This document shows, piece by piece, positions 27,489-50,633 of a stretch of DNA of 64,000 nucleotides. The position numbers were made by a program, and so were the translations under genes. Below the pieces are notes generated by a model. It ran no database searches and was not told the origin of the DNA. It saw nothing but the letters and a program-made list of their open reading frames with translations. Source of the stretch: Ilyonectria destructans (Eukaryota > Ascomycota > Sordariomycetes > Hypocreales > Nectriaceae); NCBI GenBank assembly GCA_020740775.1, contig JAHEWK010000015.1:1550001-1614000 (forward strand), in the 5' to 3' direction. Numbering within the stretch: position 1 is the first letter of the stretch; each line of letters opens with the position of its first letter.

Positions 27489-29520
27489 TCAATAGTTGCG
27501 GACCTCGTTTCCTACCGCTTCGTTCGTTTTCGCCTCCGTCCTTGCCCTTTCAATGATATCCTCCCAAGTCGGAGGCTTGCACCGTCGATCTAGAGTCGCC
27601 GCCTCTGCATCAAAGCCAAACTTGAGCAACGCATCTTCACTACACCATTCACCAGCCGCCATTAAACCAACAGGGACCATGCCATCAGTCTCATTACTAG
27701 CAACTTCGCCAGCTTCTGGGCTGCCCTCGGGAATGACATATCCTGCCGGCACGCTCAAAGCCGGAAGGCCACAGAAGTTGGCCAGCCATACGTATTCCAT
27801 GCTCTCCAAAGTGTAATCTCCGTTGTTGAGGCCGTAAGACAATTCTGTCTGACCGCCGCGAATCGGCCATCCTGCGCATGCTGTGGTGGGCGTGATGATG
27901 AGCATACCGGGATACGTTTGCCAAAGGTAGGCCAAGTGTTGCATCAGCAGGCCACGCAGCTTCTGCGCTAGGAGATAGTCGGTAGAGGGAGTCGTGCGAC
28001 CGAGAGATATGAGGACTTTGTTGGCTGCCGTGATGCCTTCTGTGTTATCGAGGAGGGTCGCGGCATCGGTCAGAACAGTGAGCGCGTGTGCCATTTGCCC
28101 TTCGGCAGCAAACGGAATTTCAATAGGGACGACAGTGTAGTCGTACTTGGCGACCAGAGTATCTACAAGGCTGCGAACTAGGGTCTGGACCCCGGGCTGT
28201 GCTTGGGAGAACCAAGTTTCGTAGATCCCAAGGACTTTCGTCACTGGAGGTGTCGGCTGAAGGGCCAAGGGAGGGTATTTGGTTGATGGATGAGGTTCTG
28301 CGATGGCCTCGTACACAGATACTAGAGATTTCATATCAATCGCGAGAGGACCTTGAACCGCACAAGTTGAAGAGTGATTGACGCCAGGCCAGGTCGTAAA
28401 ACGAGCATGCGTGGGCTTGAGACCAAAAACAGAGCAGAACGAGGACGGAATGCGAATGCTGCCACCTCCATCGCTGCCAAGGGCGATGGGGATAATGCCA
28501 GTGCCGACAGCGTAACCCGGACCGGAGGAACTCCCGCCAGTATAGTAACCTGGGTTGAACGGGTTGGGAGGCGTGCCTTGGATGGGGTTATTTCCAGTCG
28601 TATCTGACAGAGTCAGCAATAATACACAGTAAATGAGAGTCTAAAAGGTAGACATGCCTAAGCCAAATTCATGCATGTGCAGTTTACCCAGAATTATAAC
28701 GCCTGCATCCTCAAGCTTGCGGGCCAACCAGCTCGTAGACGATGTCTCATCAGATACGACACCGGCGTGGTCTGTGGCGGAGCCGAGGGTAGTAGCATAA
28801 CCATCAAGGTCATAATCGTCCTTGATACCTGAAGGAATTCCATCTAGAGGGCCAAGAGATTGCTTGTTCTTGTAGCGTTGAGTCGAAGCCTCGGCTGCTT
28901 TCATGATCGGATCTAGCTTAATCTCAGTCCAAGCTATGGAATGCTTTCCAGGCTGGATGCCATTGGGACGGATGAGAGGTAGAATAGCTTTGACAACGTC
29001 CGTTGGGGTCAATTCTCCCGACAGGTACAGAGCACGGAAGTCAGCTACCGAGTATAGCCCAAGATCGTGAGGACGGTCATTTTCCCTCAATAAAGCCGAA
29101 AGCTGGTCCTTTCGCCCCCGGGCTTTCGCTTCTGACTCGCTAAGAGGAAGCGGAATGATTGTCGGTTCGTAATGCGGCTCGTAATCCTTAAGGTAGACCT
29201 GGATCTTGCGGAGTGAGTCAAAGCCCGCGTTGTGCCACGCCGCTTCTCGGATGATCCGGAACCATTCCATCCTGGGAGAGGTAAGCCTGGGACGGTTGAA
29301 GCGTCTACAATGACTCACAAGAAGGCAGCCACGACGAGAAAAAGCCCGCTGAGGACGGGGTTCGAGCTTCTTTTGATCGAATATGGGACACTGGGCCTGG
29401 CAAACGTGTCAGCTTAAAGTCTGTCTTAAAGTCTGTGCTGGTGTGGCACCACTCGACACCTTACCCTTTCTTCGGCACCGGATAGTTGAAGAACCTCGTT
29501 CTACTCTCTTCTTGACTCAT
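27489..29520 (-). CDS. Amidase (amidase-signature family), membrane-anchored
   Basis: Four exons: 29520-29465, 29396-29319, 29271-28658 and 28603-27489, giving 620 residues. Introns 1 and 2 are GT-AG (68 and 47 nt). Intron 3 (28657-28604, 54 nt) must start with GC (TTAG|GCATGT) and end CAG to give HEFGLDTTGNNP, the family pattern. A hydrophobic segment, NPVLSGLFLVVAAFL (about 31-45), suggests an N-terminal membrane anchor. The catalytic triad is visible: Lys in SGIKDDYD (K195), cis-Ser in TGGSSSGPG (S274) and nucleophile Ser in GSDGGGSIR (S298). It hydrolyses an amide or possibly a lactam-derived amide; the substrate is unknown. The MULE is inserted 165 bp upstream of the start codon, in what should be its promoter. 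Confidence 0.92.
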
Positions 29521-29676: not shown

Positions 29677-29685
29677 ATCCGGCCA
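29677..29685. repeat. MULE target-site duplication, left copy (9 bp)
   Basis: ATCCGGCCA immediately outside the left terminal inverted repeat. It is repeated exactly at 50625-50633. Confidence 0.92.
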
Positions 29686-29777
29686 GGCGAAGAGTACCGA
29701 CACGGCTAGCCGTGCATTTACCAACACGTGACATTTGTACGGCTAGCCGTGCAATAAAGATCGGTTATATAGTAAGT
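29686..29777 (+). repeat. MULE left terminal inverted repeat (92 bp)
   Basis: The outer 31 bp (29686-29716, starting GGCGAAGAGTACCGACACGG) match the complement of 50594-50624 perfectly. The inner 61 bp align without gaps, and nearly all mismatches are C/T or G/A. Two copies of the palindromic word ACGGCTAGCCGT occur (near 29702 and 29739), plausible transposase-binding repeats. Confidence 0.93.
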
Positions 29778-30369
29778 AATTTTTAGCCCTTAATAATAAC
29801 TGCAAATTGGCCCTTAATCTAATGATTAATAGCTTCTATAGTATTAATTTAACTTACTGTACCTTTATCCTGCTATAATAAACCTAATTAATACTTCTAA
29901 TATTTATTCTGCAGCTTTTTTAGTCTTTTCTAATAATATTCTTCCCCCTAAAGGCTAATATACTTTATAAAAGAAACTTTATATTATAATTAATATTTAG
30001 GTAGTATTATAAGGTTATATCTTTATAGTCTAAAGGTCTATAGAGACTATAAATAAAAGAATTATTATTATTTATATATATAACTATAGAGGGTATTTTT
30101 ATCTCTATAAGAAAGTAAACTAGCAGTAGAATTTATACTATAGAATACTATTTTTTTATTATTATAAAGAAAAATTTATATTAGATTATATAGAGTCTAT
30201 AGTATTATTTTAATATTTTTTTTAGTTAATATAATTATAAATTAAATTAATCTTAATAGAAATATCCAGCTTATTATTAGCTATTAGATAAATAGAAAGA
30301 TACTATTTAGAAATTAGCTAGAGTTAGTATTATATCTAAATAGATTAAATTCTTTTTATATAATAATCT

Positions 30370-30800
30370 ATTTATTCTTACTATAAAATAAGATATCTAT
30401 AACTATATTATATAAGATAAAAAAAATCTTACTAAAGGTTAAAATAATATATATATTCTTATTAAAGAGCTTAAAGCTAAAAGCTTTTAAAGTTAATTTA
30501 ATTTTAATATAAGTAGTAAAATTATAGTAATACTATTTATATATCTATAGTTATTAGTATATCTTAAATTATATCTTAAAGTATTTATTTTAAACTATAT
30601 CTATAAGACTAATAAGTATAAAATACCTCTTTTTAATATAGTTAATATTAATATTTATTAATAAAGCTTCTATATAGTATTTATATTTCTTTTTAGTAAG
30701 AATAAATCTAATTATATATAGACTCTTAAAGAGCTATAGTATATATATTAAATCTATAGAGTAGCCCTTCTATTTATAATTTTTATAGATTACTATTTTA
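30370..30800 (+). pseudogene. MULE transposase relic
   Basis: Reading from 30563 gives LKLYLKVFILNYIYKTNKYK followed by IPLFNIV. This matches the MULE signature around the first catalytic Asp (LDCTYKTNKYKMPLLNI); the Asp codon now reads Asn, as expected from a G-to-A RIP change. Upstream, a DIYNYII segment followed by NLTKG and an IKELKA-type helix matches the region before the catalytic core. Downstream, TLKEL...PSIYNF matches the next conserved block. Several stops interrupt it. The rest of the gene continues toward 31.6 kb and, beyond Gypsy A, after 48.5 kb. Confidence 0.85.
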
Positions 30801-31625
30801 CTTATATAAATACTATTACCTCTTCTTTTTATTTTCTTAAGTTAACTATAATATTATATATATAGTATATTAATAGAGTAATTTTAGTTTATTATCTATT
30901 TTTATTTACTTAAAAGAATAAAATTAAAAGGAAGAAGAAGTAAAAGGAATTTTATATCTATTAGTATAAGCTTATAGACTTAGAAATTAAAAGTATTTAT
31001 AATTAAAATTTAAAAAGATTTAAAAAGTATTATATCTTTAAGTATATTAATTAAGTAGGCTATCTACTAAATATCTAGCTTAATTTTTATAAAAAGAGAT
31101 TTATTAAGATATAGATTAATTAATATCTTTACTTAAATTAATATATTATATTATAAGATAAGAATATTTACTAGCTTATTAAATTTTATATAGATAATAT
31201 AAAAATTAATCTCTTTAAGACTTAAAAGATTATTAGGTATATTCTAATTAATTAGATTTTTAAATTTAATACTATTTAAGGCAGATAGTATATTAATATA
31301 TCTATTTAACTATTTAAAATTCTATATAGTAATATATATAGTTAGATTTTATATTATATCTTATATAAGATTAAGAGTTAATAGTAATAGTTATTATAGA
31401 ATCTCTCTATATATATAGAGGTCTTTATTAAAATACTTAATCTACTTTATATTTATATTATTTAATTCTTATTAAGATAGAATTAACCTCTTTAATTATA
31501 TTATTTCTATTTATATTAATATCTCTAATAATTAGAAACTCTTTAGCTTTTTATTAAGCTATATAGTTAGTTTAATTATCTTATAGCTAATTTAATATTA
31601 CTACTAATAAATATATAATATAAGC

Positions 31626-31630
31626 TCTAT
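31626..31630. repeat. Gypsy A target-site duplication (TCTAT), left copy
   Basis: TCTAT abuts the left LTR and is repeated at 48490-48494, directly after the right LTR. Confidence 0.88.
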
Positions 31631-32062
31631 TATAACAGTCCTTCTCTTAAGTCTGCTGTATATATAGTATAGAATAGGCAGAAGAGTAATTATTAGTGAA
31701 TAAACTATAGGTTTATATTAGCAGATAGATTAAAGCGTTACTTACTGGGTAAATATTATATCTGGTAATAGTTAAGTATAATAATATATAGTAAGTTAGG
31801 GTAAGTAAGATAATCAAATTATATTAAAAGCTGGTAAGCTATCTATCTAGAAAAGTGCTAAATAAATGTAATTATATATTAAATATAGCTTATAAAGTAA
31901 GTCTTTAGATTGCAGGTAAGTCTGGCCGGCTTATATATAAGCCCGGGTGGCTTACGGATAAGTTAATTCAGTACGGCGTAAGCTGTACTGGTTGGGCTGT
32001 AATTGGGAGAAATTTATAGGGGCTATATAACGTTAAGTATTTATGCTGTATAGGCTGTAATA
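31631..32062 (-). repeat. Gypsy A LTR (3' LTR by element orientation)
   Basis: 432 bp, matching 48058-48489 along its whole length. It includes the conserved run TCTGGCCGGCTTATATATAA. Differences between the two LTRs are almost all transitions. Confidence 0.9.
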
Positions 32063-35000
32063 TGATATCTCCCCTCTGTTGGTTCTTATCCTTAAGATTC
32101 AATATTAGGCCTTATTGTGAATTTCTTTTAGTCTGTCTATACTTAGTTCTATATTCCCCTTATATAGCTAATAATATATCCTCAGTTAAATTTAAAGCTA
32201 TAATAAACTGTAAGGTATAGGCAGTTCTTATTACTACTACTGGCTTTACTATTATATCTTATTTATACTATATACCTAGAAAGTTAAAGTATATTATAAA
32301 AAAGGGTTATATAAAGTATGCTGAATATATATATTACAGTTATCTTTATAATAGTTAAGGTATATTTTTGGTAGTAAGTAAGGGTATTTTAAGGCTTTTC
32401 TTCTGGTTTTTTATACTGACTTAAGGGTGTAGCTAACTGTCTGGCGCTTGAAAAATAGCACCTAAAGGCTGCTAAGAAAGCTACTAAAGAGGAGCTGATT
32501 TAGTTATAATAGCAGCTAAATAAGTATCTTTTCTATTTAATATAATTATATTATTAGAAATAGTAACTACTTAAGAAGGATATTTAAATATTAAATTGCA
32601 GTTTTATATCTATAGATAATCTAGAGGAGGTAGAGTATATAGAATTAGAGGTAGTAGTTTTTATACAGTTTATTCTATACTTAGATCTTATTAATTAAAA
32701 TACTATAGGTTCTTTATCTAATTTCCTTTTTAATATTAGTAAAACTTCTTTATAAGATATAGTATCTAAATATAATTTCTAGAGTCTATTCTAATATATA
32801 TTTTCTAGGCTACTTTTTTATTTAAGGAAGTCTTTTAGTTTTACTTAGCAGTAAATTAGATATTTATAGAGTTTCTATATATTTTCTAAAGTATTATAAT
32901 TTTTTTATTTTACTAAATATTATATTTTATTATTATTTTATTTTATATTAATAATTCTATTAATAGTAAATTCTTAGTTATTCTTAACTTCTATTTTCTA
33001 ATTATTATTCTATATTTTAATATAAATAGTATCTGCTGCTAATTTAAATAATAAAATATAAAAGATTAAATAGAGTTTAACCTTTAGTAGTAAGTTCAGT
33101 TTATAATTATTTTTTAAGATTTTTTCTAAAATTTTATAAGATCTAATAAATTTAAAGTTTAATTTATAGTTTGGCCTTTTTATTATAATATTTTTTATTA
33201 TAAGGTAGACTATATCTTCCTTCTGGAAGATTAGTCCCTTTAATCTTTTTTAGTTATAGTATTTTTTTATTTAGTTATATATAAACTTTAGTTCTATATA
33301 TATTTCCTTATATAGCTATTATAGCTAGTTAGTAGTAAGAATTACTTTTATATTAAGTAGTCCTTCTTTTAACAGTCTATAGGTATCTAGAGTAAATTTA
33401 AAGTTTATATAAGCTGGTATAAGCTTTATTATTCCAAAAGTAGAGATATTATAGGCCAGTTATACTATAGGCAGCTTTTAAACCTAATTATTCTGCTTGT
33501 AGTTAATATAGTATTATAGATACTATTTAACTATTTAGTTAAGTCTTTCTATTTATCTATCTACTTATAGTTTTTAAGCTGTTATAAGCTTATAGTTTAA
33601 TCCCATTTAAGCTATTAGTCCTTACCAGAATTTAAATATAAAGGTTATTCCTCTATTAGATATAATCTCTATTAGTAGTCTATATATACTGATAATATTT
33701 CTCAAAAATATATAAGAAAGTTATTCTATATCAGTAGACTCTTAGTAGGGTAGAAAGTATAAAAACTTTATAAGTCTATCTATAATAATAAATATACTAT
33801 TATAGAGTACTCCAGTTATTAGGTCTTTAGATAGTAGGAGCTTAATAATATAGTCTATAGTAATAGATTCCTAAAGTTATTATACTACTAGTAGTAATTA
33901 TAACAGTCTATAAGGCTTATATTATAGTAATTTAATTTTATAGTATAGATTATATTTTTTAATAGTATCTAAAATAGCTTTTTTTATTTAGGGGAATAAG
34001 TATATTATTTTAAGCCTCTTAAGGATTCTATTAATATTCTAATATCTATATAGAGGGTATTTATAAATATTCTGTATTAATTACTATTATAGTTCTTTAG
34101 GAACCTATAATTATTCTATTTATTCTTCCTTAGGTAGTATATTATTATACTTCTAAATTCCCTTAAGCAGTAGGTTTTTTTATTCTACTATATATATTAC
34201 TGTAATTATTCTTTACTTAAGTTTATTAATAAATTATACTTTTTTTATTAGTTCTTAGGGCTATTAGGTTTCTATTTCTTATTTTTTACAGAAAGTATAT
34301 TATCTAAAATCTACTAAGTTAGTAATAAATCTCTAATAGAATTATATATATATTTATTTAAGAGTAAGTTCTTATTTCTAGTAGTTATTTATATATTTCT
34401 TATCGAACTTAGGTATATATTCCGGGGGTATAAAGGCTTATTTCTTATAGATAGGTATTCTATATTAGTAATTATACTTATAGGGGTAAATAGTATTATT
34501 ATTATTTCTAAAACGATAGTATTATTATATCTTATTTTGCTATTTCTTATTTAGGGTTTCTAATAGGCCTTTTTATATTATCCCAAGCTTCTTATTATAT
34601 TTTAAGTATACTATCTATAGGTAGTTATTATTTTTAGGTATTATATAATTACAATAGAATCTTTTATAGACTTAGCTTTTTATAAGCCCCTTAATTTAGT
34701 AGTATTTTATTCTATTCTTTAGGAAGCTAGATACTAGTTTCTAAGGTATAAATACTTATTTATAGTATATTAGTATTTTATAGTTATAGTTAAACTTATT
34801 AGAAAATACTTTATTATTATTATTATAAAATAAATATCCCTTATATATCCTTATCTGCTATTTCTTACTGGATATTTTATTTATATTATGCTATTTTTTC
34901 TTATACTTATAGAGATTAATAATATATCTCTACTTAAGATATCCTTCTGGAGTTAGCTTAAGAAGTTATTTATTTTCCTTAGTAATACTGATATTAAAGT

Positions 35001-35739
35001 TAAATTGTCAGCTAATAGTATCTACTCTGCTATTTTTTAATTCTTTCTTATAGATAATAATATAGTTAAATTCCAATAGATATTCCATATAGTAAAGTTA
35101 CCTGCTATTAAGTTCTTAAGTAGTTATAAAGTGTGAGATATTTTTATAGTTAGTATAGATTTTAATTTTATACTTACTTTCTAAGAGGTAGTATTAAAAT
35201 TCTTTAAATAAGTTAACTATAGTAAGAAATTCTTTATTATAAATAGAGTAGTTAAGCTTTACTCTATAGAGTTTATATAAGTAGAAGGCAATTAGGTGTA
35301 ACTTCCTATTAATATCTCTCTACTCTATTTAGGATTCTAGATTAAAATTAGAAGAATCTATTTCCAGCTTAACTTCTTTTTTAGAGTTAAATATAACTAA
35401 AACTAATTTACTGAAAATTGCTTTCTTAATATTATTAAAAGCCTTTTATACTTTAATATTCTATTAAAAGTCTATTTCTTTCTTTATAAGTTCTATAAGG
35501 GTATATTTAATACTTCTGAAATTATAAATAAATTTTTAGTAGTAATTAGTAAATCCTAAGAAGCTCTGGACTTCTTTAACTGTATTAGATTTTAGCTAAT
35601 CTTTAATAGCTTTAATTTTCTTTCAATCTATATAGATCTTATTTAGATGGATAGTATATTTAAGAAAGTTCACTTTATCTATATAGAATTTACTTTTTTC
35701 TAGTTTAATAAGGAGGTTTATATCTTATAGTTTTTTAAG

Positions 35740-35860
35740 TATTATATAGATATATTCTATATATTCTTCTTCTATATTAAAGAAGATAAAAATATTATTA
35801 AAGTAATATATAATAAAGATATTAAGATATTCCTATAGTATATTAGTAATTATCTATTAA
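35740..35860 (-). pseudogene. Gypsy A reverse-transcriptase core relic
   Basis: The complement reads IFIIYYFNNIFIFFN then EEEYIEYI. It corresponds to the Y(I/L)DD active-site block of Ty3/Gypsy reverse transcriptases, with both Asp codons mutated and stops nearby. Confidence 0.8.
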
Positions 35861-37663
35861 AAGGTTACCAGTATATTAGTAAGTCTAAAGGGTATAACTA
35901 AATATTTAAAAAGTCTGTATTTTATATAGAATACAGTCTTCTATTTATCTTCTGGCTTAATATAGATAAAGTTATAAGCTTCTTTAAGATTAAAAGCTAT
36001 AAATTACTTCTTACTATACAGTTAATCTTTCAGTTTGCTGATAAATAGTAATAATATTCAGTTCTTAATAGTGATATTATTAAGCTATTAGTAATCTATA
36101 ACTAATTATAGTTTTCTATTTTTCTTTAGGATAAATATAACTGGATATTCTATAGAGGACTTTAATATTCTAATAAATCCTTTTTTTAATATATCTTTAA
36201 GGTATTCTTTTAATATATAAAGTTAAATTTTATTAAGGTTATAAATCTTATAGAACTTAACTGTAATTCTATCTTTTAGTACTATTTTATAATTCTATTA
36301 ACTATATTAAAGTAGGTCTATTTCTATTTCTTCAGCAAATAGCTTTTTATAAATATAGTAAGTAAGGGGTATATTCTTAAGTCTATTATCTGCCTTTTTT
36401 GTTTTTTTTATTTCTTTTAGTTCTTTATTAAGTTTTATAAATTATACTTATATTTATATAATAGTATAGTATATCTTATATATATAGGCATTTCGGTATT
36501 TATATCTAGTACCTTATAGTAATAAAGTATCTATTATATTATTATATATTACTCTACTAGTACTATTATCAGTTAGAGTTTAAAATCTTATATTATTATT
36601 ATCTAAATCCTACTTATAGAAGGAATAATTATTAATATTATTAAAGGTTATTTAGCCAGTCCTCCAATTAATTAGTAGGTTTACTTATTATAGCTATAGG
36701 TAGCCTATAATTAAATTATATTATACTAAGGGAATAATATTAAAAGAGATACCTTTATTATATTTATTTATAAAAACCTTAAGGTAATTAATCTCTCTGG
36801 TAATATATCTATTATTATAATTAAAATTTATTTCTTTAAGGTTCTATACTTAATATAAATTTAATTTATTCTTTTATAGTAGCTTTAATTTATTTACTAC
36901 TCTTAGGTAAAGATAGTTAAGTTCTATACTGCTATCTATTAGTACGGTATATTAGTATCTCTTAATTTATATCTGGATTTCTAAGTAATTTATTCTTATA
37001 CTTCCTGTAGTATATAGAGCTCTTACTGGGAGTTTTACTTCTTCTAGCTTTAGGTCTATCTATTACTCTATTATAGAGGGTAAGAGTGGTTTTTTATCTG
37101 TGTTTAGACTACCTTATACTATTTTCAGTTTTTAGCTTATCTGCTGGTTTATTATTTAAAGTTGAATCTATCTTTATATATTCTGTATATATATCTATAG
37201 GTTTTCTTTTTCTCTTTATTATATATTAGGTATATATAAGTGCTGCAGTCTATTATAAAGTATTTCTTATAGATATTATTAGGTATAGAGATAGAAATAT
37301 ATTTTTTATTTATTCTCTATATATAGAGAGAGCTTTTTCTTATCTTATATTCCTTATAGCTATTCTACTTACTTAATATTATAGTAGTTTTATTCTATTA
37401 GTTGGGTGTAGACTTTTCTTCTCTAGTTATTCTAAGCCAGTTCTCTATTTCCCTTTATTAGATATTATTATTAGATAACTTATTATATCTGGTTTCTTCT
37501 AGTTAGAAGTATTTTTATTTTTATAGGAAATATTTTTATTCTTTCTGCACTTAATACTAAAGGTATACCTTAGTTTTTATATAGATTTAATATTTCTAAT
37601 ATTAGTAATTTTAAGAGTTCTATAATCCTTATATATATTATTATAGAAATCTAATTATTTTAG

Positions 37664-37668
37664 CTTCC
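37664..37668. repeat. Gypsy B target-site duplication (CTTCC), left copy
   Basis: CTTCC precedes the left LTR and is repeated at 46080-46084 directly after the right LTR. Confidence 0.9.
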
Positions 37669-38062
37669 TGTAACGGTTGGGTCTAACCTAGGGGTATAGG
37701 GTAGGTCCAGTGGTGTAGTGTTTATAATTAAGTGGATTAGGATGTTATAGTAAGCAATATAGGTTACAGTCTGGTAATAGTAGAATAGTAGATTTAATAT
37801 AACTAAGTGTATTAATAGCTAGTGAGGCTATCCCTATAAAAGTGCTAAATAACTATATCTATATACTAGATGCCTTATATAGTCTTAGTGATGCCTTTAT
37901 AAGGCTTATTAATAAGACTGTCAGTCTTATTAATAAGAGTTGTAAGTAGAGTACTAATACTAGTCTATTATATATAGGCCTTTAGGCCAATAGGGAGGAA
38001 AAAGTAGGTACTGTTATAATTCTGCCAGTTGTAACTGCCTGGTCTCAACCTGGGCCGTAATA
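37669..38062 (-). repeat. Gypsy B LTR (3' LTR by element orientation)
   Basis: 394 bp, from TGTAACGGTTGGGTCTAACC to GGGCCGTAATA. It matches 45686-46079. The original terminal CA has become TA here. Confidence 0.92.
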
Positions 38063-38884
38063 TAATATCTCCCCTCCAATAGTCTTATCCTTAAGATCTA
38101 TATATAAAACTGTAGCCCCTAAGGATGTTAGTTTATCTGTAACCTTATTTCTTATTCCTCTTGAAATACTAATATAATGTCCAGCCGTATTTCTAAAAAA
38201 CCGTCCGTTAAGAAGAAGAGTTCTACTGAGTCTTACTACATCTAAATCTTACTTATTAAAGAGTTTGGTTATAACAGTATATCTTGCTTATTCTGTTTGT
38301 TGAAGGGGTTTCGGTGTTATATTGCGATAATGTTAAATTGTTATTTGGAGTGTGTCTGTTGAGGTTAAGCTTGCAATATATTAGGGATTTCTGTGGTAGT
38401 TAGTAGGTATTAGGTATTATGCGTACTTCTATATCTTTAGGCTGATAGTTGGGTAGCAACTTAAATTATTGTGGAGAAGTATTATATTGAGTATAAGGAG
38501 GAGGCTACTGAGGAAGCCCTTTTAAAGTCTTATAAAGTATTTAAAATTATATAGAAGGAGATTGCAGATAGTCTGGATCGGTTAGCTTATCTGCGGAAGT
38601 AGTATAACTAAGTGATCTCTTATGGTAAGGAGCTGGTCTGTTGTGGTGCTTGCTTTTTAGATAAGTTAGATACAGTGGAGTGTATAGATTTAGAAGCTGT
38701 AATTAATATATAGTTTTTAGTTTATTCTGACCTTATTGACTGGAGTTCTTTTGATTTTAGTAATCTTTTTTTATCTGCTTTTAGTGCTATTAATAGAAGT
38801 TCTTTAGAAGGTATTATATATAGGTAAGGTTTTTAGCTGATTCCTATTAGTTGTTGCTCTTTAGGTAGTTTTTCTATTTAATAA

Positions 38885-38960
38885 GGTACTCAGTTTTATT
38901 ATTAATTCTATATATCTTAAGAATCTTCTTGACTTTATATTCCTCTAGTTCTTTAACCTC
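38885..38960 (-). pseudogene. Chromodomain relic of Gypsy B
   Basis: The complement reads EEYKVKKILKIYRINNKTEY then LIK-stop-KNY. This is the E(Y/W)xVExIL...LVKWKGY pattern of chromodomains at the C-terminus of Gypsy integrases, with the Trp codon turned into a stop. Confidence 0.75.
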
Positions 38961-41394
38961 TATTTTATATTTATTGCTATACTTAGCTATAATATTGCCT
39001 TCTATACTCTTAAGGAGTAAGATATAGAAGATAGGGTAGAGTCTGACTTTTAGTGATAAGTCTAAATAGTAGTTGTTTTCTGAGATTTTTTTGAGAATTT
39101 TATAGAGGCTAATATATTTATAGTTCAGTTTTTTATTTTATCGTTTTGTTTTGATGTTTTTTGTGGCTAGGAGGACTATATCTTTCTTCTGAAAGGATAG
39201 TCTCTTTATCTGTTTTTTATCGTAATGTTTTTTTATCTGGTTTCTAATAAATTTAAGTTCAGTCTTTATTTCTTTATATAGATTTTTTAAATTTTCTGTT
39301 ATAAGGATGGCTTTAGGGATAATTAATCTATTTTAGCTTGTTCTGTAGGTATTGGGGGTGAATCTAAAGTTAGTGTATACTGAAGTAAGCTTTATACTTT
39401 TATATATAGATATATTATAGCTTAGCTATGCAGTCGGGAGCTTCTTAACCCAGTTATTCTATTTATAGTTGATATAGTATTAAAGGTACTATTCCAGTAT
39501 TTAGTTTATTTATTCTATCTGACTGTCAGTCTGTAGTCGGAAAGCTGTTAAGAGTTGGTAGTTTAATCCTAAGTAGTCTATTAGTACTTATTAGAACTTG
39601 GAAGTAAATAGGGGTCCTCTATTGGAGAGAATCTCTAAGAGTAGTCTGTAAATACTAATAATATATCTCAGGAAGATATAGGCGAACTGCTCTATATCTA
39701 TTAACTTCTAGTAGGGTATAAAATAGGAAAATTTTATAAGTCTATCTATAATAATAAGGATGCTATTATATATAACTCCAGTTATAGAGTCTTCTGATAG
39801 GGGTAATTTAGTAATAAAATCTATAGTAATAGAGTCCTATAGTTACTTAGCGACTAGTAGGGGTTACAGTTTTCTGTATAGTTTATAGTGTCGGGCCTTA
39901 GTTTTATTGTAAAGTAGGTACTATTTAGTAACTTCTTATATAACTTTCTTTATTTTAGGAAATTAATATATCGTTCTGACTTATTTAAGGGTTTTATTAA
40001 CTTCTTAATATCTGTATAATAGGTATTTATGAATTTCTTATATAAGCTGGTACTGTAGTTCTTTAGGAATCTATTATTTATTTATGTATTCTCCTTTAGG
40101 TAGTATATTATTATACTTCTAGATTTATTTAAGCAGTGGGTTTTCTTATTCTACTGTATGTATTGCTGTAAGGGTTCAGTATGGTATTTTTATTACTTAG
40201 TTAAATTTGTAGTATTTAGGTTATCTTAGTTGGCTGGGTTTATAATCTTTATATTCTATTCCTTCTTTATATGTGTGTATGTATTTACTGAGGATATATT
40301 ATGGGTATTTCTTATATATTTCTATATGGCTTATATATATATCTATAATATTTCTGTAGAAGTACTGGTTGAGCTTTCTTACTAATAACTAGGGGTTTCT
40401 ATAGTGATTTCCTCTATAATAGTAGGATATTATATGTAACTATTATAATCCTGTGGGTATGATTTTTCTATTATGCTACTGGATTCTCTATAGTTCAGGA
40501 TTAATATTATATATCTAATTCTTAAAGCTCTATTTAGGTTATATAAGGAGCTTTATTAGTTCTTCCGGTATCTATATCTAGATTGCTATTATAATAAACT
40601 TCTATTTAAGATATTCTTTAGGCGTAAAGTGCAGAAGTTATTTGTTAATTTTGGTTTTGCCGGTATTTAAGTTGTATTATTAACTGATAGTGTCAGCCCG
40701 TCTATTTTCTGATTCTTTTCTGTAGATAATTATATAGTTAAATTTTAAGAGGTATTTGGCGTATTATAGTTATTGTCCGCTAAGTTCCTAGGTAGTTGTA
40801 AAGTATATGATGTTCTTATAGTCTGTATAGACCTTAATTTTATATTTGCTTCCTAGGAGGTAGTATTGGAATTCCTTAAATAAGTTGATAATTGCGAGGA
40901 ATTCCTTATTGTAAATAGGGTAGTTAAGTTTAGTACTGTATATTTTATAAGAAAAGAAAGCAATAGGGTGTAATAGCCTGTTATTATCTCTTTAACTAAT
41001 TTGGGCGCCTTATATAAAGTCCGATAAATCTATCTTAAGTTTGATTTCTTATTTGGGGTTAAAGATAGCTAATATAGATTTACTTAAGATAAGGTTTTTA
41101 ATAGTATTAAATACTTTCTCTATAGCAGTATTCTATTTAAAGTCTACTTCTTTTTTAGTAAGTTCAGTAAGTAGTATAGTATAGCTACTAAAGTCCTTAA
41201 GGAACCTTTAGTAGTAGTTAGTAAATTTAAGGAATAATTATACTTCTTTAATATTTATTAGTTTCAGCTATTTACTGACTGCAGTAATTTTCTTTGGATT
41301 TATCCTGATCTTGTTATGGGAGATAATATATTTAAGAAACTTTACTTCTAAGGTATAGAAGTTACTCTTCTTTAGTTTAACCAGTAGGTTTATA

Positions 41395-41530
41395 TCTTAG
41401 AGTGCTTATAGTACCTTATAGATATATTCTATATATTCTTCTTTTGAGTTTAAGAAGATTAGGATATTATCTAGATAGTATATAATAAATATATCCAGAT
41501 GCTTATATAGTATATTATTAATTATTTATT
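41395..41530 (-). pseudogene. Gypsy B reverse-transcriptase core relic
   Basis: The complement reads IFIIYYLDNILIFLNS, then a KEEYIEYIYKVL block and KKSNFYTLEVKFLKYIIS. This is the Ty3/Gypsy YLDD block and the following thumb-proximal segment (KSEF...VEFLGYIIS). The second Asp is now Asn and stops occur close by. Confidence 0.85.
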
Positions 41531-44494
41531 AAAATATGGCTGGTGTATTTATAAGTCCAAAGGGTATAATAAGATATTTATAAAGTCCGAACTTGGTTTA
41601 AAAGGCGGTTTTCTATTTATGTTCTTTCTTAATGCAGATAAGATTGTATACTCCCTTTAGATTTAGTACTGTAAATACCTTCTTACTATAGAGTTAGTCC
41701 TTAAGCTCTGTAATAAGAGGTAATAGAATTTAATCTTTAAGTGTAATATCGTTTAATTATCAGTAGTCTATAATAAGTTGGAGCTTGCTATTCTTTTTAG
41801 GAATAAATATAACTGGATATCTAGCTGATAACTTGAAGATCCTGATATATTCTTTCTGTAGTATATCTTTAATATATTCTTTAAGTATGTTAAGTTGTAT
41901 TTCATTAAGGTTGAAGATTTTGTGAAATGTGGGCGTTATTTTATCTTTCAGTATAATTTTATAGTCCTATTAACTGAATTTGGGTAGTTCTATCTTAAGT
42001 TTTTCTGTAAAGAGTTTTTTATAGATTTAGTACTATACTGGTATATTCTTAAGTTGTTCTTCTTTAGGTATCTTCTTATAATCCTTAAGGTTCTTATTTA
42101 TCTATATAAACTATTATTAAAGGTATCTAATTGTTCTTTAGAGTTATATCTTTTTGTCTTTTTGGTATTTATATTATATTCCTTTTGGTGGTGCTAAGGT
42201 ATCTGTTATATCTTTATGCAAATTCTTACTCTTGCTGTCTTTAGGAGTTGGAATTAAAGATCTTTTATCTTCTGAGTTGCTATTATCTTTATTAGAGAGT
42301 ATATTATTATAATTAATATATATCTGGCCAGTTCTCCAGTTGAATTGTAGGTTGTATTTTATTAGCTATAGATACCTAAGAATAATGTTATAATACTTTA
42401 TTAGTATGATGTTAAGAGTGACTTCTTAATTTTATCCGTTAATAAATATCTTTAGGTAATTAATCTGTTAAGTTATCTATCTGTTATTATATTTAAAGTT
42501 ATTACCTTTAAAGTTATATACTATATAGGGGTTCTTTTTATCTTTCTATAGTAGCTTTAGCCTATTAATTACTAATAGGTCAATATATACAGCTTTAGCT
42601 CTACTATCTACTAATACAGTAAGCTATACTCCCTTAACTTATACTTATAACTTAAGTATCTTTCTTTTCTTTATTAATTCTATTATATATAGAGCTTTTA
42701 TTAGAGGTAGTTCTTCCTTATAGGTATTGCCTGCCTGTTGCTCCTCTATAGGTAGTATATATCGTTTTTTATAGGGCAGCTATCAGCTGAATATTCTATC
42801 TCAGAATATTTATTATAGCTATTCCTAACCTATTAGTACCAGACTTAGTCTGCTTAATTTATTCCGGTTTAAGTTAGGAAGTTAAATCCCTTATTATATA
42901 TCTATCTGATGTGTATGTTGATTTCTTATGCCTTTATGCCGTGCTTGAGGCATCCGGGCTTATTGCAGGTTATTGTATTTCGTGCCGAGTAAGATTGGAT
43001 ATTCCAGATGGATTCTTTATTATTGTATTTAGGGGTTATCCCTCTATATTCCCAATCTTCTATCTTACTTCTCTAGGCTTAATTGAGACTGCTTGTTCCT
43101 CGGTGATTTGAGAAGTTGTAATTCCGGTAGATTAGGAATTTAATATGTCGGAACTTATTTTGGTTTTTCCAGCTGTATTTGGTGCAGTCTGGTTTATTAT
43201 ATTATAGTGCTCTTATTGTAATACACTTAGTAATATCTTCTTTTTTATATTTATACTATTCTCTTATCTTTTATTATTTATATATATAGTATTCTTTAGT
43301 TTTGCAGTTTTTAATAGTGCTATTTGGGTTTATATATTCTGGTGGGAAAAGGTCTCCTTTATCTTCCAGTTATATAATGCCTATTTCTATATACTATTTA
43401 GTAACTTAAAAGTACTTAAGTTTATTCTATAAATATAGATTCTAAATAAGAGTGTTATTAGTTTATATAGGAAAATAGTTATAATAGATTTTATCTTCTT
43501 TATATATTGGGTATTTATAGATAATATATAATACCTATAAGATTTCCTTGTAGTTGGGGTGTACTACTGCTATTCTTGGGTTATTATCTTCTTGTTCCTT
43601 TAGGGTTATATAGTGTGGGTTGCAGCCTAATAGTATATTATAGGTGCAGATATAGATAGAGTCAGTTGCAGTAGGTATTTATTATTTATTTGCGAGGTCG
43701 TTATATATTTCTGTGGGGTTCTTCTATATTTAGTTTCTGAGGTTGTTATATTTCTAGTATTCTATATAGCTGGGCCTAGAGTCTTATTTATCCTCTATTT
43801 CTGAGTATTTATCAGCAGAGGCAATAATATTCTGGTCGGCTACTATAAGTTCTAGCTTCCTCACTAGTCTTATTTCTTATTCTATATATACTTAGGGGGT
43901 ATTTTCTTCTTTAGTGTAGAAGTATTAGCAAAGCTTATCCTTTTCTTCTTATTTCTTAGATATCTTTACTCCTCTTTCCCTATTAGTTAGAGGTAGTATA
44001 ATAGGTCTGGGTTATCTGTCCGGAATTATATCTCCTCTTTATATTATAGCTATAGTATATAGCGTGTTATTAAGGGTGTTTAGGGTAGTATTATAACCTT
44101 CTGGAATTAGTCTCTAGATGGGCTTATTCCTCTGGTGACTTTATTGTTTCTTTTTCAGCCTGGTGTCTTACTTATTCTTTCTTTTAGTGTCTATTTTTCT
44201 ATGCTATATAGCTTGTTTTTATACCTTCTCTGCTGTATTGTCTTTAATTGTTTTGGTGGTTCTTTAGATGTGTGGTTTGAGGATGAGTATATTATTAAGG
44301 TATTTCTTTTTCCAGTCTACATTATTCTTATAGGCTCTATTAAACCCTCCGTTGTAACTGCTTCAGGTTATAGCAATAGTCTTAAATCAAATAGCAGTTT
44401 GAGGTTTATTATTATTATTAGAGTGCTGGTAGTTAGTAAATTGTATATACTTACCTTTCAGTATAGGCTTGTGCTTTTAGTTGGATTTTAGGGC

Positions 44495-44539
44495 GCAATA
44501 CTTACTTTCAAAGTGGCCTATCTTTCTGCAGTTCCAGCA
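44495..44539 (-). pseudogene. Gag CCHC zinc knuckle of Gypsy B
   Basis: The complement encodes CWNCRKIGHFESKYC, a complete C-x2-C-x4-H-x4-C knuckle of a retrotransposon Gag nucleocapsid. Confidence 0.85.
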
Positions 44540-44999
44540 CTTAACCTTTAAATAGTCCTTCTATATAGCTTCTAATTCTATAGGTTCTGGTGCTATTCTA
44601 TAGGAGGTATTACCTTATTGTTTCTTACTGTAGTTGGCGTTATTCCTCTTGCCTTTCCAAGATAGTATATAGATTATCCCTCCTGACTTCTCAGTCTTCT
44701 TTTCTTATTGTCTTTCAAACTGTTAGTTATTGATTTCTATAGAGAGGGTAACGAGGGTATTAAATGTAGTTGGCTTGCGCCCAACTATTGCATCTTTAAC
44801 CTCTAATTTAAGTCCTCTGTAGTAGGCTGCTATATATACTTCTTCTCCCCAGTTTAGGTATAAGGCGCTATTGCGGAATTTGGCCGTATAGCTAGATGCT
44901 GAGGCTTTCTGAGAGAGTTTCTGAAGTCGTATTTCTGCTGCTCTTTTTTCGTCAATAAGGCCAAATGCATCTTAAAGTTCTTTTTTGAATACTTTATAG

Positions 45000-45622
45000 C
45001 TGGCATAGATAGTCCTGGTTTTATCCTTTTATATATAGTAGGGATTATTAAGGTAGTCTCTTATAACTGGTTTAAACTATTAGAGTGCTTTTTCTTTAAG
45101 AAGTCCTATAGTATAATAGATTTTGGCTTCTTCTCCAGCAAACTGTATAGGATAGTAGCTTTAGAATACTCTAACTTATATAAGGAATCCTTAGAGACTG
45201 ATAGCTGCTCTATTAAATAGTTCGGGTTGTTTTGGTTTAAGGATTTCTTCTGTATCTCTTCCTTTTGCTATAAAAGAGTTAAGGTAGACGATATAGTTGC
45301 AGTAGAGTGACTCTTATCGGATAAGGTCTCTATTAAGTTGCTTATTGCAATCTATAAGCTGGTTTATTTTCTCTAGCAGTTAGTTAATCTTATTATCTTT
45401 CTTCTTATCTTTTCTATCGGTAATATCGGCAAGCTTATTAAGCTCGGCTTTAAGGCGATTATTTTGCTTTTAGAGTTTCTTAAGATCTTTCTGAATAACC
45501 TCTTTGTTATTAGAGTCGGATTCGGATTTTTCTATATTAACGTCGTCGACAGAGTCGACCTTAGATAGAGTAACAGGATTTTTTCCAGTTCCAGATAAGA
45601 TGCTTAAGGTTGCAGGAGCCAT
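45000..45622 (-). pseudogene. Gag N-terminal region of Gypsy B
   Basis: The likely gag start is the ATG at 45622 (MAPATLSILSGTGKNPVTLS), 64 bp inside the 5' LTR. The frame continues with acidic and coiled-coil-like sequence before the first stop after about 55 codons, and gag-like sequence resumes beyond it. This is the least RIP-damaged part of the nest. Confidence 0.7.
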
Positions 45623-45685
45623 CTTAGCTTATTCAAGATATTACTCAGGTCGACGTAGTAATACACTGAATAAAAGCTATTAATA

Positions 45686-46079
45686 TGTAACAGTTGGGTC
45701 TAACCTAGGGGTATAGGGTAGGTCCGGTAGCGTAGTATTTATAATCGAGTGGATTAGGACGTTATAGTAAGCAATATAGATTACAGTCTGGTAATAGTAG
45801 AATAGTAGATTCAATATAACTAAGTATATTAATAGCTAGTAAGGCTATTCCTATAAAAATGCTAAATGACTGTATCTATATACTAGATGCCTTATGTAGT
45901 CTCAGTAGTGCCTTCGTGAGGCTTATTAATAAGACTGTCAGTCTTATTAATGAGAGTTGCAAGTGGAGTACTAATACTGGTCTATTGTGTATAGGCCTTT
46001 AGGCCAATAGGGAGGAAAAAGTGGGTACTGTTATAGTTCTGCCAGTTGTAACCGCCTGGTCTCAACCTGGGCCGTAACA
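45686..46079 (-). repeat. Gypsy B LTR (5' LTR by element orientation)
   Basis: 394 bp, from TGTAACAGTTGGGTC to GGGCCGTAACA, with intact TG...CA ends. Differences from 37669-38062 are transitions. Confidence 0.92.
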
Positions 46080-48057
46080 CTTCCAGAATAATAATATAAT
46101 ACTTAGGGTATCTATTAATATTTTTATAGTACTCTATATTATATTTTATATATAGTTAGGTAATAGGGATTTCTAGCAGTCTTAGGGGGTAATAGTTATA
46201 AGTCTATTTATTCTTTAAGTAGTAGTGGTATTATAGATAGTAGTATAAGATCTATAAGATCTAGTTATATCCTTCTATACTGGGGTGGAGAATAGAGTTA
46301 TCCCTAAACTCTCCTTTTAATTCCACTATATAGTCTTTTACTTTATATCTTATTATTATATAAAGGTAAATAGGTTTATATTATTTAGCGTTCTGTTATT
46401 TTCTTATAAGTTATTAGTATATAGCTTCTTTATTTTCCTATTGTTATTTACTTTACTTATTAAGTATAGTCTTATCCTACTATAGTTTCTCTATTGCTAT
46501 CTGGCTTATTTCTTTTGGGATGCTGGGTATGTATTCTTCTGTATAGAGGTTTAGTCTTTTTTTGTCGCTAAAGTTAGGATATTTATTCCTAATATTATAA
46601 TTATCTAGCTATCTATTTGGGATATTATTCTGAGTGTCTGGTACTTTTAGTGTTTCTTTTTAATAGGTTTCTAGTTGTTTTTCTTATTGTACTATAGCTA
46701 TTATTCTTAATTTTTCTGCTGATAGTTAAGTTATTAGTAGTTCTAATATTAGTATTTATTCTATCTATTTTTCCTGTCTATTTACTCTTAAGGTAGGTTC
46801 TTTTAGGTGTAGTACTTCTACTTCTTCTTGGGATAAATATCACCTTCAGCTAGATAGATATATAGGCCAGTTCGAGCTGGAGTGCTTATATATACCTTAT
46901 ACTATAGTAATAGTTTATATTTATACTGCTATTTCTATTTCTTTCTATCTCTAGATAGTATTTAATAATTACTATTCAGTGGGTATAGGTTAGAATTATT
47001 ATTCCTTCTCAAGTTTGCAGTATTTTTATATAAAGTGTCTCTTTTTATTATAGTTATAATATATAATATCCTTTTTATCTTAGGGCTGCCTCTATATAGC
47101 TTTAAGTTCTATAGGTTTAGTGTATATTCCCTAAGAGGTATTTCTATAAAAGTTACCCTATTGGCTACCTCTCTATCCTTTACTATTCCCTTACTAGTTG
47201 GGGTAGTAGGAATTATATAGAGTATTCTGACCTCTCTGGTGTATTATAGCTTTTTTCCTGTATCTTTTATATTATTATTTATCGATTTTAATAGCTATAG
47301 TAATATACTCTATAAGGATATTAGGTCAGTTAGCTTTATAGAGTTTGTTTTTAACTTTATTCTTTAGTTTTTAGTAGAATATTTCTATAAGTATTTTATT
47401 CTTTTAGTTTAATTTAGAGGCAACTTACTAGAGTGTAATAATATAGGTAGTAGCAGAATGAATTTATTTGAGCGTATAGATTTTTATAGCTGCCTGCCTT
47501 TTTTTATTAACTATTCTAAATATATCTTTAAGGGCTACTTTAAAGTTTTCCCAATCTGCAAATAAATTAACTATATCTTAATTCTAGTCGGCCTTATTAT
47601 TATTAAGGAAATCTTTAAGAATAAATTTAAACTAATTTTTTATATTACCGGCTATTAAATTACTTATAAATAGTAATTATAATTCTATAGATACTAACTG
47701 TTATAGATATTACTGAAAGTATCCTTTTATTTTAGTAATAAAGAATATAATATTACTGAGTATTCTATTAAACTTCTCTAGTAGCAGTAGTTTTATTACT
47801 TCCTCTAGATTATATTTATTATTTCCAGTAACTAATACTAATATATTCTATACTTACTATTATAGAGTGTAGACTAAATTATACAGCTATTTTACTTTAG
47901 CAGCTATATTGGTATTACCTACTAGAGCTATATAAGCTGGTAGTATAGATATATTACTTAGGGTAATAGAAGTTTAATTAGTTCTAAATATCTTAATAGT
48001 ATAAGATATTACTTAATAGTTAATATAAGTAATCTTTCTAAATAAAAGCTTTTAATA

Positions 48058-48489
48058 TATAATAATCCTTCTTTTAAGTCTGCTATATATATAGTATAGA
48101 GTAGGCAGAAGAGTAATTACTAATAGATAAACTGTAAGTTTATATTAGCAGATAGATTAGAGTATTACTTACTAAATAAATATTATATCTAGTAATAGTT
48201 AAATATAATAATATATAGTAAGTTAGAGTAAGTAAGGTAATTAAGTTATATTAAAAGCTGGTAAGCTATCTATTTAGGAAAGTACTAAATAAATATAGTT
48301 ATATATTAAATATAGCTTATAAAGTAAGTCTTTAGATTGCAGGTAAGTCTGGCCGGCTTATATATAAGCCTAGGTAGCTTATAGGTAAGTTAATTTAGTG
48401 CGGTATAAGCTATACTGGTTGGGCTGTAATTGGGAGAAATTTGTAGGGGCTATATAATGTTAAGCGCTTATACTGTATAGGCTGTAATA
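48058..48489 (-). repeat. Gypsy A LTR (5' LTR by element orientation)
   Basis: 432 bp, matching 31631-32062. It is followed at once by the second TCTAT copy. Confidence 0.9.
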
Positions 48490-50532
48490 TCTATCTATTT
48501 AAAGCTATTAAGAAATTAATATAGATAAAATTAGTATTAATATATTTAAAATATTATTAATTAGACTATATAATAAAATTTAAAGTATACTTTTTATATT
48601 ATAATAAACTATTAAAGAGTTAGATTTAAATTTCTATTTAAACTTTTACTTTAATATTAATAGATATATTAATCTATATATATTCTTACTTTAGTATCTA
48701 CTTATTATCTTTTTTATCTTTAATAGAATACTCTATAGTATTTAAGATTATATTTAAGACTCTATTTAAGATTATATTTAAAACTGAAGTCTATATAAAA
48801 AGGCAGATAAAAATAATATATAGAATAGCTTGCTAAAAGACTTTTTTTACTGCTATATCTAAATCTCTATTATAAGCTAATAATCTCTATACTATCTTCT
48901 AATAGTATAAAGTAGCTTAAGAAATTTAATTTACTATATTACCTTAAGAAGCTATTAGAATTAATTAATAATACTATAAAGCTATAAAGCTGCTTCTATA
49001 TTATAGTAAAGCTAAATATATCTAGTATATTAACTATAAGTAAATAGAAAGTTATTATAAAGTAAGAAATCTTATTAGAAATTAAATTTAAAAGGAAATA
49101 ATAAGTTATTTTAATTAGAATAAAACTAAAAATAAATATATTAAATAGAATATTAAAATTAAGATAGTATAATAGTCTTTTTTATAGCAGTAAGAAATAT
49201 AAGATATTTAAGCTGCTACTAAAAGCAATTTAAAAATATAAATAAAAGTATATAAAGAGGAGAATACTCTCTATTAAAATCTATATAAATAATAAAAAAT
49301 ATAATTAGTATATATTATTTAAATAAAAAAGAAAAGATAGATTTCTAAATATAGATTTTATAATTTAATAGCTTAACTTAATAGAATTATTCTTAAGTTT
49401 AAATATAAAGTAAATTTAATTTAGTAGTTATTTATATTATAATAAGAAATATAGATATAATAGTATAATCTTATAATATTGAATAACTCTATAATATTAT
49501 TATATTTTCTACTATATCTATATAATATATCTATTCTAATTAATATTTTAAAGATATATTTCTAATCTTTTTACTACTTAAAGTACTAATAGATTAATAG
49601 TTATTTCTATAGTAGCTATAAGTTAGATTATACTTAAAATTATAATATTTATATTCTAATATTTATTATTAATATTTTAAAGCTAATTATAATTCTATAT
49701 AGAAATTATATCTAGAAGAGGATATTATTACCCTTAATAAAGAATATTATTAAGAAACTTAATATACTATTTTTCAGTAAGCTAATATCTAAATAGTATT
49801 ATTTCTATAATAATAAACTGCTCTTAAGAAGGATATTAAGTAGCTTAAGCTTTTATAAGTACTTAAAGGTCTATATAGAATATAGTAAGAAATATTAAGT
49901 CTATTAATAGAGTTATAATAGCTCTTTAATATTTAATTAGAAATAATATTATTATTAGATAAATAAGTTAGATTAAAGCCTATATTTATTAGTTATTAGT
50001 AATAGAATATAAAATAAATAGATTATTACTATTAACTTATAGTATTCCAGTAGGTATTATTAAATTATCTATAAATATAGAGATATTCTAAGAGTTTTAA
50101 TATTAATTTTAATTATAGTTATATATCTTAATATCTTAAGATTATTATTTAATATAAAAAGAGAGTATATTTTAAAAGAAGAAATTCTACTTTTTATACT
50201 ATATCTATTAAAGTTATTTACTTATATATAACTATATATATTAAGGTTATCTATCTATAGATAATAGCTATAAAGTTATTTACTTTCTAATAACTATATA
50301 TATTAAAGTTATTTATTTCTATATAACTATATATATTAAAGTTATTTATTTATAGATAATAGCTATAATATTATAACTAAATTATATATTATTTACAGTC
50401 TTCTACAGACTAATATATTATCTTTAGGTTAAATATAATACCTTAAATAGCTAAATATATATTAAATTATTATCTTTATTTAATAGTATTAATAAATATC
50501 CTGTAGGTATATATAAAAGAGATATCCCTTAA

Positions 50533-50624
50533 ACTTACTATATAATCGATCTTTATTATATACCTAGCCGTATAAATGTTACGTATTAGTAATTGCACGG
50601 CTAGCCGTGTCGGTACTCTTCGCC
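50533..50624 (-). repeat. MULE right terminal inverted repeat (92 bp)
   Basis: Inverse complement of 29686-29777. The outer 31 bp (50594-50624) are identical. The inner part is more AT-rich than the left copy and has lost one of the two palindromic ACGGCTAGCCGT words by C-to-T type changes. Confidence 0.93.
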
Positions 50625-50633
50625 ATCCGGCCA
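50625..50633. repeat. MULE target-site duplication, right copy (9 bp)
   Basis: ATCCGGCCA immediately outside the right terminal repeat, identical to 29677-29685. Confidence 0.92.

What the first reader, a model, noticed from the sequence alone, without database searches (positions are those of the whole stretch)
29677..50633. Three-level nested transposon resolved to exact borders: MULE > Gypsy A > Gypsy B
What looks like 21 kb of featureless AT-rich DNA has a precise structure visible in the sequence. The outer 9-bp duplication (ATCCGGCCA) flanks 92-bp inverted repeats. 432-bp LTRs with TCTAT duplication lie inside them, and 394-bp LTRs with CTTCC duplication lie inside those. Each pair of repeats has equal length and each duplication is exact. 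Order of insertion and relative age can be read directly.
Basis: seen in the sequence. Interest (0 to 1): 0.9.

Follow-up and report, generated by a model that had tools for sequence, protein, structure and literature searches.

The report
Three transposons nested in fungal DNA
A fungal DNA transposon jumped in beside a gene, two retrotransposons then landed inside it one after the other, and all three were mutated to death; the nest is real and of an ordinary kind, but its layers hint at how such dead AT-rich islands may seed and grow.

Summary
Confirmed at the stated coordinates: 9-bp duplication and 92-bp inverted repeats (81/92 identical); Gypsy A with 432-bp LTRs and TCTAT; Gypsy B with 394-bp LTRs and CTTCC. 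The window's own 71.7-Mb genome is held, so each joint was checked against copies lacking the insert. MULE relatives run through Gypsy A's site with a single 5-bp target (6 of 6 that reach it); A-type relatives do so at Gypsy B's site (23 of 23 loci, 19 places). The outer element is a MULE; A and B are chromodomain Ty3/Gypsy elements on the minus strand. The island is AT-rich because all three took heavy RIP-like C-to-T mutation, least in Gypsy B. All LTR differences are transitions, so LTR divergence is no clock: order is readable, age is not. Useful by-product: intact relatives of A sit in AT-rich DNA at 13 of 13 sites examined, MULEs at 1 of 14, suggesting that mutated MULEs can serve as landing pads. 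A well-resolved new member of a known kind.

The parts
29677..29685 (.). 9-bp target site duplication ATCCGGCCA, left copy
50625..50633 (.). 9-bp target site duplication, right copy
29686..29777 (+). MULE terminal inverted repeat, left, 92 bp
   Evidence: the left-end query has 31 matches in the own genome, two of them the window's own ends
50533..50624 (-). MULE terminal inverted repeat, right, 92 bp
29686..31630 (+). MULE left arm (1945 bp, ends with TCTAT)
   Evidence: aligns end to end to L041 163-2108, 89.7%
48490..50624 (+). MULE right arm, starting with the second TCTAT
   Evidence: aligns to L041 from 2104, in two pieces
30152..31474 (+). transposase remnant, residues 93-533 of the 852-aa relative in L049, stop-ridden
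   Evidence: tblastn E 9e-77; Pfam MULE at 30599-30826, 26.4 bits against cut-off 27.6
48705..49124 (+). transposase remnant, residues 662-802 of the same relative
   Evidence: tblastn E 3e-14
31626..31630 (.). 5-bp duplication TCTAT of Gypsy A, left
48490..48494 (.). 5-bp duplication TCTAT of Gypsy A, right
31631..48489 (-). Gypsy A (chromodomain Ty3/Gypsy), coding strand minus, interrupted by Gypsy B
31631..32062 (-). Gypsy A LTR, left copy, 432 bp
48058..48489 (-). Gypsy A LTR, right copy, 432 bp
32785..37008 (-). Gypsy A pol remnant: protease 36655-37008, RT 35650-36126, RNase H 35059-35481, integrase 33019-34131, chromodomain 32785-33021
   Evidence: tblastn of separate domains of L082
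37664..37668 (.). 5-bp duplication CTTCC of Gypsy B, left
46080..46084 (.). 5-bp duplication CTTCC of Gypsy B, right
37669..46079 (-). Gypsy B (chromodomain Ty3/Gypsy), 8411 bp, coding strand minus
37669..38062 (-). Gypsy B LTR, left copy, 394 bp
45686..46079 (-). Gypsy B LTR, right copy, 394 bp
38796..42656 (-). Gypsy B pol remnant: protease 42324-42656, RT 41322-41804, RNase H 40731-41153, integrase 38991-40070, chromodomain 38796-38990
27489..29408 (-). flanking host amidase gene (two open frames, stop to stop)
   Evidence: flank composition not RIP-like
51389..51829 (+). flanking host glyoxalase/VOC-family gene

Best explanation
A Mutator-like DNA transposon (MULE) inserted into ordinary-GC DNA upstream of an amidase gene, duplicating 9 bp. 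Gypsy A, a chromodomain Ty3/Gypsy retrotransposon, then inserted into the MULE's transposase region (5-bp duplication), and Gypsy B, a second chromodomain Ty3/Gypsy family, inserted into Gypsy A upstream of its pol domains, at a place that lies in the gag frame of the intact relative L082 (5-bp duplication). All three are multi-copy, so repeat-induced point mutation (RIP, or a RIP-like C-to-T process) mutated each of them, with no sign of it in the host DNA next to the MULE; this made the 21-kb AT-rich island and its stop codons. Shown: borders, order, empty sites in relatives, identity of all three, C-to-T spectrum, lighter load in B, sparing of the MULE's outer ends. Inferred: that the agent is canonical pre-meiotic RIP, and that AT-rich mutated DNA was the attractive target for the chromodomain elements.
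For: Borders and TSDs. Gypsy A empty site: in L039, L041, L042, L043, L044 and L048 the two MULE arms overlap by exactly 5 bases (6 of 6 relatives whose alignments come within one base of the site on both sides). Gypsy B empty site: 23 of 23 A-type loci (19 distinct places) overlap by exactly 5 bases. MULE identity: PF10551 at the homologous spot in the window and in other copies of the TIR family, tblastn E 9e-77 and 3e-14 on the two sides of Gypsy A, five full-size relatives of 3974-4268 bp against 4075 predicted. A and B: seven of seven pol-domain queries hit both and nothing else in the window, in order PR-RT-RH-INT-CHR, minus strand. RIP: against unRIPped relatives, CpA converted (two strands) 94%/90% and 94%/91% in the MULE arms, 89%/85% and 94%/74% in the two parts of A, with transversions at only 2.1-2.8% per site; CpA+TpG per 100 bp 1.08 and 0.89 (MULE arms), 2.18 and 3.50 (A), 6.07 (B), 14.0-14.4 in L082, L042 and the right host flank.
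Against: The window's genome has no relatives held, so the host empty site is untested. The Pfam MULE hit in the window itself is below the family's cut-off (26.4 against 27.6 bits). CpG is converted about as much as CpA in the heavily hit copies, unlike the strict CpA bias recalled for Neurospora; partly hit L044 and L048 do show CpA > CpG > CpC > CpT. The MULE-to-A step of the gradient is small (one A part equals the MULE on one strand). B was polarised only against a distant relative (CpA 67%/53%, 15.4% transversions), so its step rests mostly on residual dinucleotides. The domain searches ran without composition correction.
Confidence: 0.96

Rival explanations
1. Seed-and-grow extension of the best explanation: the MULE inserts in gene space, is mutated into AT-rich, probably H3K9-methylated DNA, and thereby becomes a landing pad to which chromodomain integrases of Gypsy elements are drawn; each newcomer is mutated too, so the island grows by positive feedback.
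For: Relatives of Gypsy A with an open 1443-aa RT frame (L082's pol has a Pfam chromodomain) have AT-rich outer flanks at 13 of 13 sites examined, of 16 listed (GC 0.13-0.33), while MULEs have mean flank GC below 0.35 at 1 of 14 and any flank below 0.35 at 2 of 14 (Fisher p 6e-6 for the more cautious count). Among the eight of these MULEs on contigs of 1.9 Mb or more, none has a flank below 0.35. As those Gypsy copies keep their open frames, their AT-rich flanks most likely pre-date them. Both window Gypsies carry a chromodomain remnant. Passages of PMC2832683 report that the MAGGY chromodomain binds H3 methylated at K9 and redirects integration to heterochromatin.
Against: Survivorship or a plain AT preference would look the same. 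No chromatin data. The same paper finds no strong heterochromatin preference for the plant chromovirus LORE1. By eye, against HP1 from memory, the third aromatic cage residue of the L082 chromodomain looks like cysteine, so H3K9me binding is not assured. Whether this MULE was already mutated when A arrived is unknown.
Confidence: 0.45
2. The AT-rich composition is native to the elements or due to ordinary drift and CpG decay, not RIP.
For: CpG is as depleted as CpA in the most altered copies.
Against: Relatives only 2-3% apart by transversions have GC of about 0.45 (L042) and, over the element part of L082, 0.46-0.56 per 500 bp; window MULE and L041 differ by 4 transversions but 418 transitions in 4079 aligned sites; LTR differences are 78 transitions and 0 transversions; the change is confined to the repeats.
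Confidence: 0.03
3. Assembly artefact or chance repeats.
For: AT-rich repeats are hard to assemble (general knowledge; no call).
Against: Copies on many other contigs reproduce ends, TSD length and empty sites.
Confidence: 0.01

Closest known systems
Fungal Mutator-like elements (Hop1 of Fusarium oxysporum; VdMULE of Verticillium, PMC3441728)
   Same: MULE transposase domain, TIRs up to about 90 bp, similar size; passages of PMC3441728 give VdMULE lengths of 3406-3613 bp and, in its table, TIRs of 73-86 bp.
   Different: Ends here begin GGCGA, not exactly the GGNAA given there for Hop1 and VdMULE; duplications here are 9 bp (there one 8-bp case). Some copies here are heavily RIPped, whereas that paper saw no clear RIP in its DNA transposons. 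No tree was made; the nearest proteins to the L049 transposase are from Fusarium solani (70%) and other fungi.
Fungal chromoviruses (Ty3/Gypsy with integrase chromodomain, MAGGY/Tcn1-like)
   Same: PR-RT-RH-INT-chromodomain order, 5-bp TSD; in the intact relative L082 a CCHC gag and a left LTR that starts TG and ends CA.
   Different: Both window copies are dead by mutation; the clade within the chromoviruses was not placed by a tree.
RIP-type AT-rich compartments with nested transposons in ascomycetes (for example Zymoseptoria, discussed in PMC9970103)
   Same: Nested copies in transposon-rich, gene-poor blocks (passages read).
   Different: Here each layer is resolved to the base and the two inner ones are checked against empty sites, and the innermost layer has the lightest load.

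Membership tests
MULE (outer element) | MULE-type transposase (PF10551) | tested here: met
   26.4 bits, E 4.6e-4, at 30599-30826, below the Pfam cut-off of 27.6; tblastn E 9e-77 and 3e-14 to the 852-aa relative, which itself scores 81.9 bits to PF10551
MULE (outer element) | long TIRs and 8-11 bp, typically 9-bp, target duplication (range recalled) | tested here: met
   92-bp TIRs; exact 9 bp in the window and in 11 of 14 two-ended relatives, 8 of 9 in two, none at the aligned borders of L048; three more relatives had one end only
MULE (outer element) | excision or transposition activity | not testable with these tools
   Only copies at different places with different TSDs
Ty3/Gypsy chromovirus (A) | PR-RT-RNase H-integrase-chromodomain order | tested here: met
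   all seven domain queries hit A in order; chromodomain E 3e-14 (no composition correction)
Ty3/Gypsy chromovirus (A) | LTRs and 5-bp TSD | tested here: met
Ty3/Gypsy chromovirus (B) | PR-RT-RNase H-integrase-chromodomain order | tested here: met
   all seven; chromodomain weakest, E 2e-7 (no composition correction)
Ty3/Gypsy chromovirus (B) | LTRs and 5-bp TSD | tested here: met
RIP | C-to-T on both strands limited to repeats, CpA preferred | tested here: met
   no RIP-like signature in 500 bp of host DNA on either side; CpA > CpG > CpC > CpT in partly hit L044 and L048; CpG about equal to CpA in saturated copies
RIP | acts before meiosis, needs RID-type methyltransferase | not tested
   No cross data; RID gene not searched

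The most novel reading that the evidence does not exclude
RIP does not only kill transposons but turns gene-space DNA transposons into landing pads for chromodomain retrotransposons, so this genome's AT-rich islands are nucleated by MULEs and grow by a RIP-to-heterochromatin-to-Gypsy feedback; the window would be one such island with its three growth steps still legible.
Probability: 0.35. Interest if true: 0.6.

Novelty: new member of a known kind. Interest (0 to 1): 0.36.

Why it matters
Nested transposons in RIP-type AT-rich blocks are common knowledge for fungi. What is useful here is a nest whose two inner joints are proven by empty sites, with the lightest mutation load in the innermost layer, and a direct contrast between where MULEs and chromodomain Gypsies land in one genome. 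It also shows that LTR divergence is not a clock where RIP acts; transversion-only distances are the better yardstick.

Tried and rejected
Strand asymmetry in Gypsy B (CpA 101, TpG 362) looked like a sign of few RIP rounds; rejected, because the unRIPped relative L082 has the same bias (212 CpA and 560 TpG sites in the A comparison).

Transposition of the window MULE after RIP: there is excess sharing of mutated sites with L041 and L044 (the window's and L041's control pairs with L048 show less), but ordinary substitutions on the shared branch could explain it; left open.

LTR divergence as a clock: rejected (transitions only). Rfam search of the window at gathering threshold: 0 matches. An intact relative of Gypsy B was not found: no place (40 of 111 candidates scored) coincides with a listed RT match (150 of 339 scored), so this is not an absence claim. 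Species name: not established; the neighbour gene's best matches (92%) are Dactylonectria and Fusarium oxysporum proteins, which points to Nectriaceae.

In one search the overlap at B's site was computed wrongly for minus-strand loci; corrected, which is the one cited. L048 was dropped from the flank count because its left end is uncertain; L053, L055 and L056 were dropped because only one end was seen.
Full report
OBSERVATION. All stated borders are exact. The outer 9-bp duplication ATCCGGCCA lies at 29677-29685 and 50625-50633; the inverted repeats are 92 bp each with 81 identical positions; LTR-A copies are 432 bp each (387 identical), LTR-B copies 394 bp each (361 identical), neither pair with a gap; TCTAT and CTTCC flank them exactly. 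Derived lengths are 4075 bp for the outer element, 8411 bp for B and 8443 bp for A without B and one duplicate.

GENOME CONTEXT. The window lies at C7:1550001-1614000 of a held 71.7-Mb, 74-contig assembly. The left end has 31 matches there, two of them the window's own. I fetched 17 relatives in 19 stretches. Of 14 with both ends, 11 have an exact 9-bp duplication, L041 and L051/52 have 8 of 9 bases, and L048 has none at the aligned borders; L053, L055 and L056 showed one end only. Five are full-size and uninterrupted: 4180 (L041), 4081 (L042), 4268 (L044), 4235 (L048, left end uncertain) and 3974 bp (L049), against 4075 predicted. The others are longer (L039/40, L043, L050, L051/52) or short, 983-2516 bp (L045, L046, L047, L054, L057).

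THE OUTER ELEMENT IS A MULE. Pfam PF10551 hits the window at 30599-30826 with five in-frame stops, slightly under the curated cut-off. The 852-aa transposase of L049 (PF10551, 81.9 bits) matches the window on both sides of Gypsy A: residues 93-533 at 30152-31474 (E 9e-77) and 662-802 at 48705-49124 (E 3e-14). Its relatives in the databases (264 proteins at E <= 0.001, 120 listed) are led by Fusarium solani at 70% identity.

EMPTY SITES. In L039, L041, L042, L043, L044 and L048 the left arm ends and the right arm begins with an overlap of exactly 5 bases, the single target of Gypsy A. L049, L050, L053 and L057 do not align up to the site on both sides; the rest are short or partial. For Gypsy B the flanking pieces of Gypsy A matched 38 and 40 places; in the 23 loci held, 19 distinct places, all 23 overlap by exactly 5 bases. 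In L082 the site falls at 7024-7028, inside the open gag frame 6431-8242. The order MULE, then A, then B is therefore shown, not only inferred from bracketing. The MULE's own host site could not be tested.

GYPSY A AND B. Coding strand is minus for both. Seven separate domains of an intact relative (L082; 1429-aa pol with protease, RT, RNase H, integrase and chromodomain) each match both A and B in the order PR-RT-RH-INT-CHR (no composition correction). A is close to L082 (2.8% and 2.7% transversions), B is another family (15.4%). The A-like family has 16 RT copies of equal top score in open frames of 1443 aa (150 of 339 candidates scored), so it was probably active recently.

RIP. Polarised against unRIPped relatives, the MULE arms have 94% (top) and 90-91% (bottom) of CpA converted and CpG 77-87%; A has CpA 89%/85% (left part) and 94%/74% (right part); B, against the distant L082, 67%/53%. 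Transversions of MULE and A stay at 2.1-2.8%. Partly hit relatives L044 and L048 show CpA > CpG > CpC > CpT. Residual CpA+TpG per 100 bp is 1.08 and 0.89 in the MULE arms, 2.18 and 3.50 in A, 6.07 in B, and 14.0-14.4 in L082, L042 and the right host flank. The load thus falls inward, clearly for B and weakly between MULE and A. The outermost 50 bp of the MULE are nearly spared (1 of 16 and 4 of 16 CpA/CpG sites converted), while beyond 250 bp 675 of 692 sites are converted (summed); L041 and L044 show the same kind of slope. The A LTRs are also less converted than A's interior. Host DNA 500 bp either side shows no such change. [quoted passage not shown]

AGE. LTR pairs differ by 45 and 33 transitions and by no transversion in 826 bp. 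LTR divergence here measures RIP, not time. The window MULE and L041 differ by 4 transversions but 418 transitions in 4079 aligned sites, the same lesson. Passages of PMC10787394 note that LTR dating assumes neutral evolution.

WHY A NEST. Outer flanks of A-like copies with open frames are AT-rich at 13 of 13 sites examined (12 of 67 bp, one of 120 bp; GC 0.13-0.33); three of the 16 listed copies were not examined. MULEs with both ends certain have mean flank GC under 0.35 at 1 of 14, and any flank under 0.35 at 2 of 14; on contigs of 1.9 Mb or more, none of eight. MULEs thus land mostly in ordinary DNA and these Gypsies in AT-rich DNA. The MAGGY chromodomain binds methylated H3K9 and redirects integration to heterochromatin, but LORE1 shows no strong preference (PMC2832683, passages). 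I hold the seed-and-grow reading at moderate confidence.

NOVELTY. Nested insertions that sharpen gene-poor compartments are discussed in print (PMC9970103, passages). My ten paper searches covered only an open-licence library, and I make no claim that the landing-pad model is unpublished. New member of a known kind.

Noticed in passing
L046 155-1137 and L047 178-1160 (C27 and C1): Two 983-bp foldback derivatives of the MULE family, no mismatch in 949 aligned columns (68 gap columns), with different 9-bp duplications and a RIP-like AT centre: apparently transposed after RIP.
   Followed up: partly
whole genome, table (112 matches): PF10551 matches without stops in frames of 300 aa or more: 3 of 19 on contigs of 1.9 Mb or more, 4 of 16 on C8-C11, 51 of 77 on the other contigs; two or more stops in 13, 7 and 5 (Fisher 5e-8, large against other). 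The lengths of many of the other contigs were not looked up. Looks like a compartment that escapes RIP.
   Followed up: partly
29686-29735 and 50575-50624; also L041, L044: Outer 50 bp of RIPped MULEs are nearly free of C-to-T change, with a slope up to about 250 bp inward.
   Followed up: partly
L050 2028-4504: A MULE on C13 carries an inserted stretch with a hAT dimerisation-domain frame (PF05699); the second frame there has no Pfam match. Another nest.
   Followed up: no
C11:78457-95327: By coordinates a Gypsy-B-type element appears to hold an A-like copy with an open frame, the reverse order of the window's nest.
   Followed up: no
window 1-3400: Second AT-rich RIP-like stretch (GC 0.175, TpA/ApT 1.37), not identified.
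   Followed up: no
29701-29753: Palindrome CACGGCTAGCCGTG near the MULE end, repeated in part about 40 bp inward (seen); a candidate transposase binding site.
   Followed up: no
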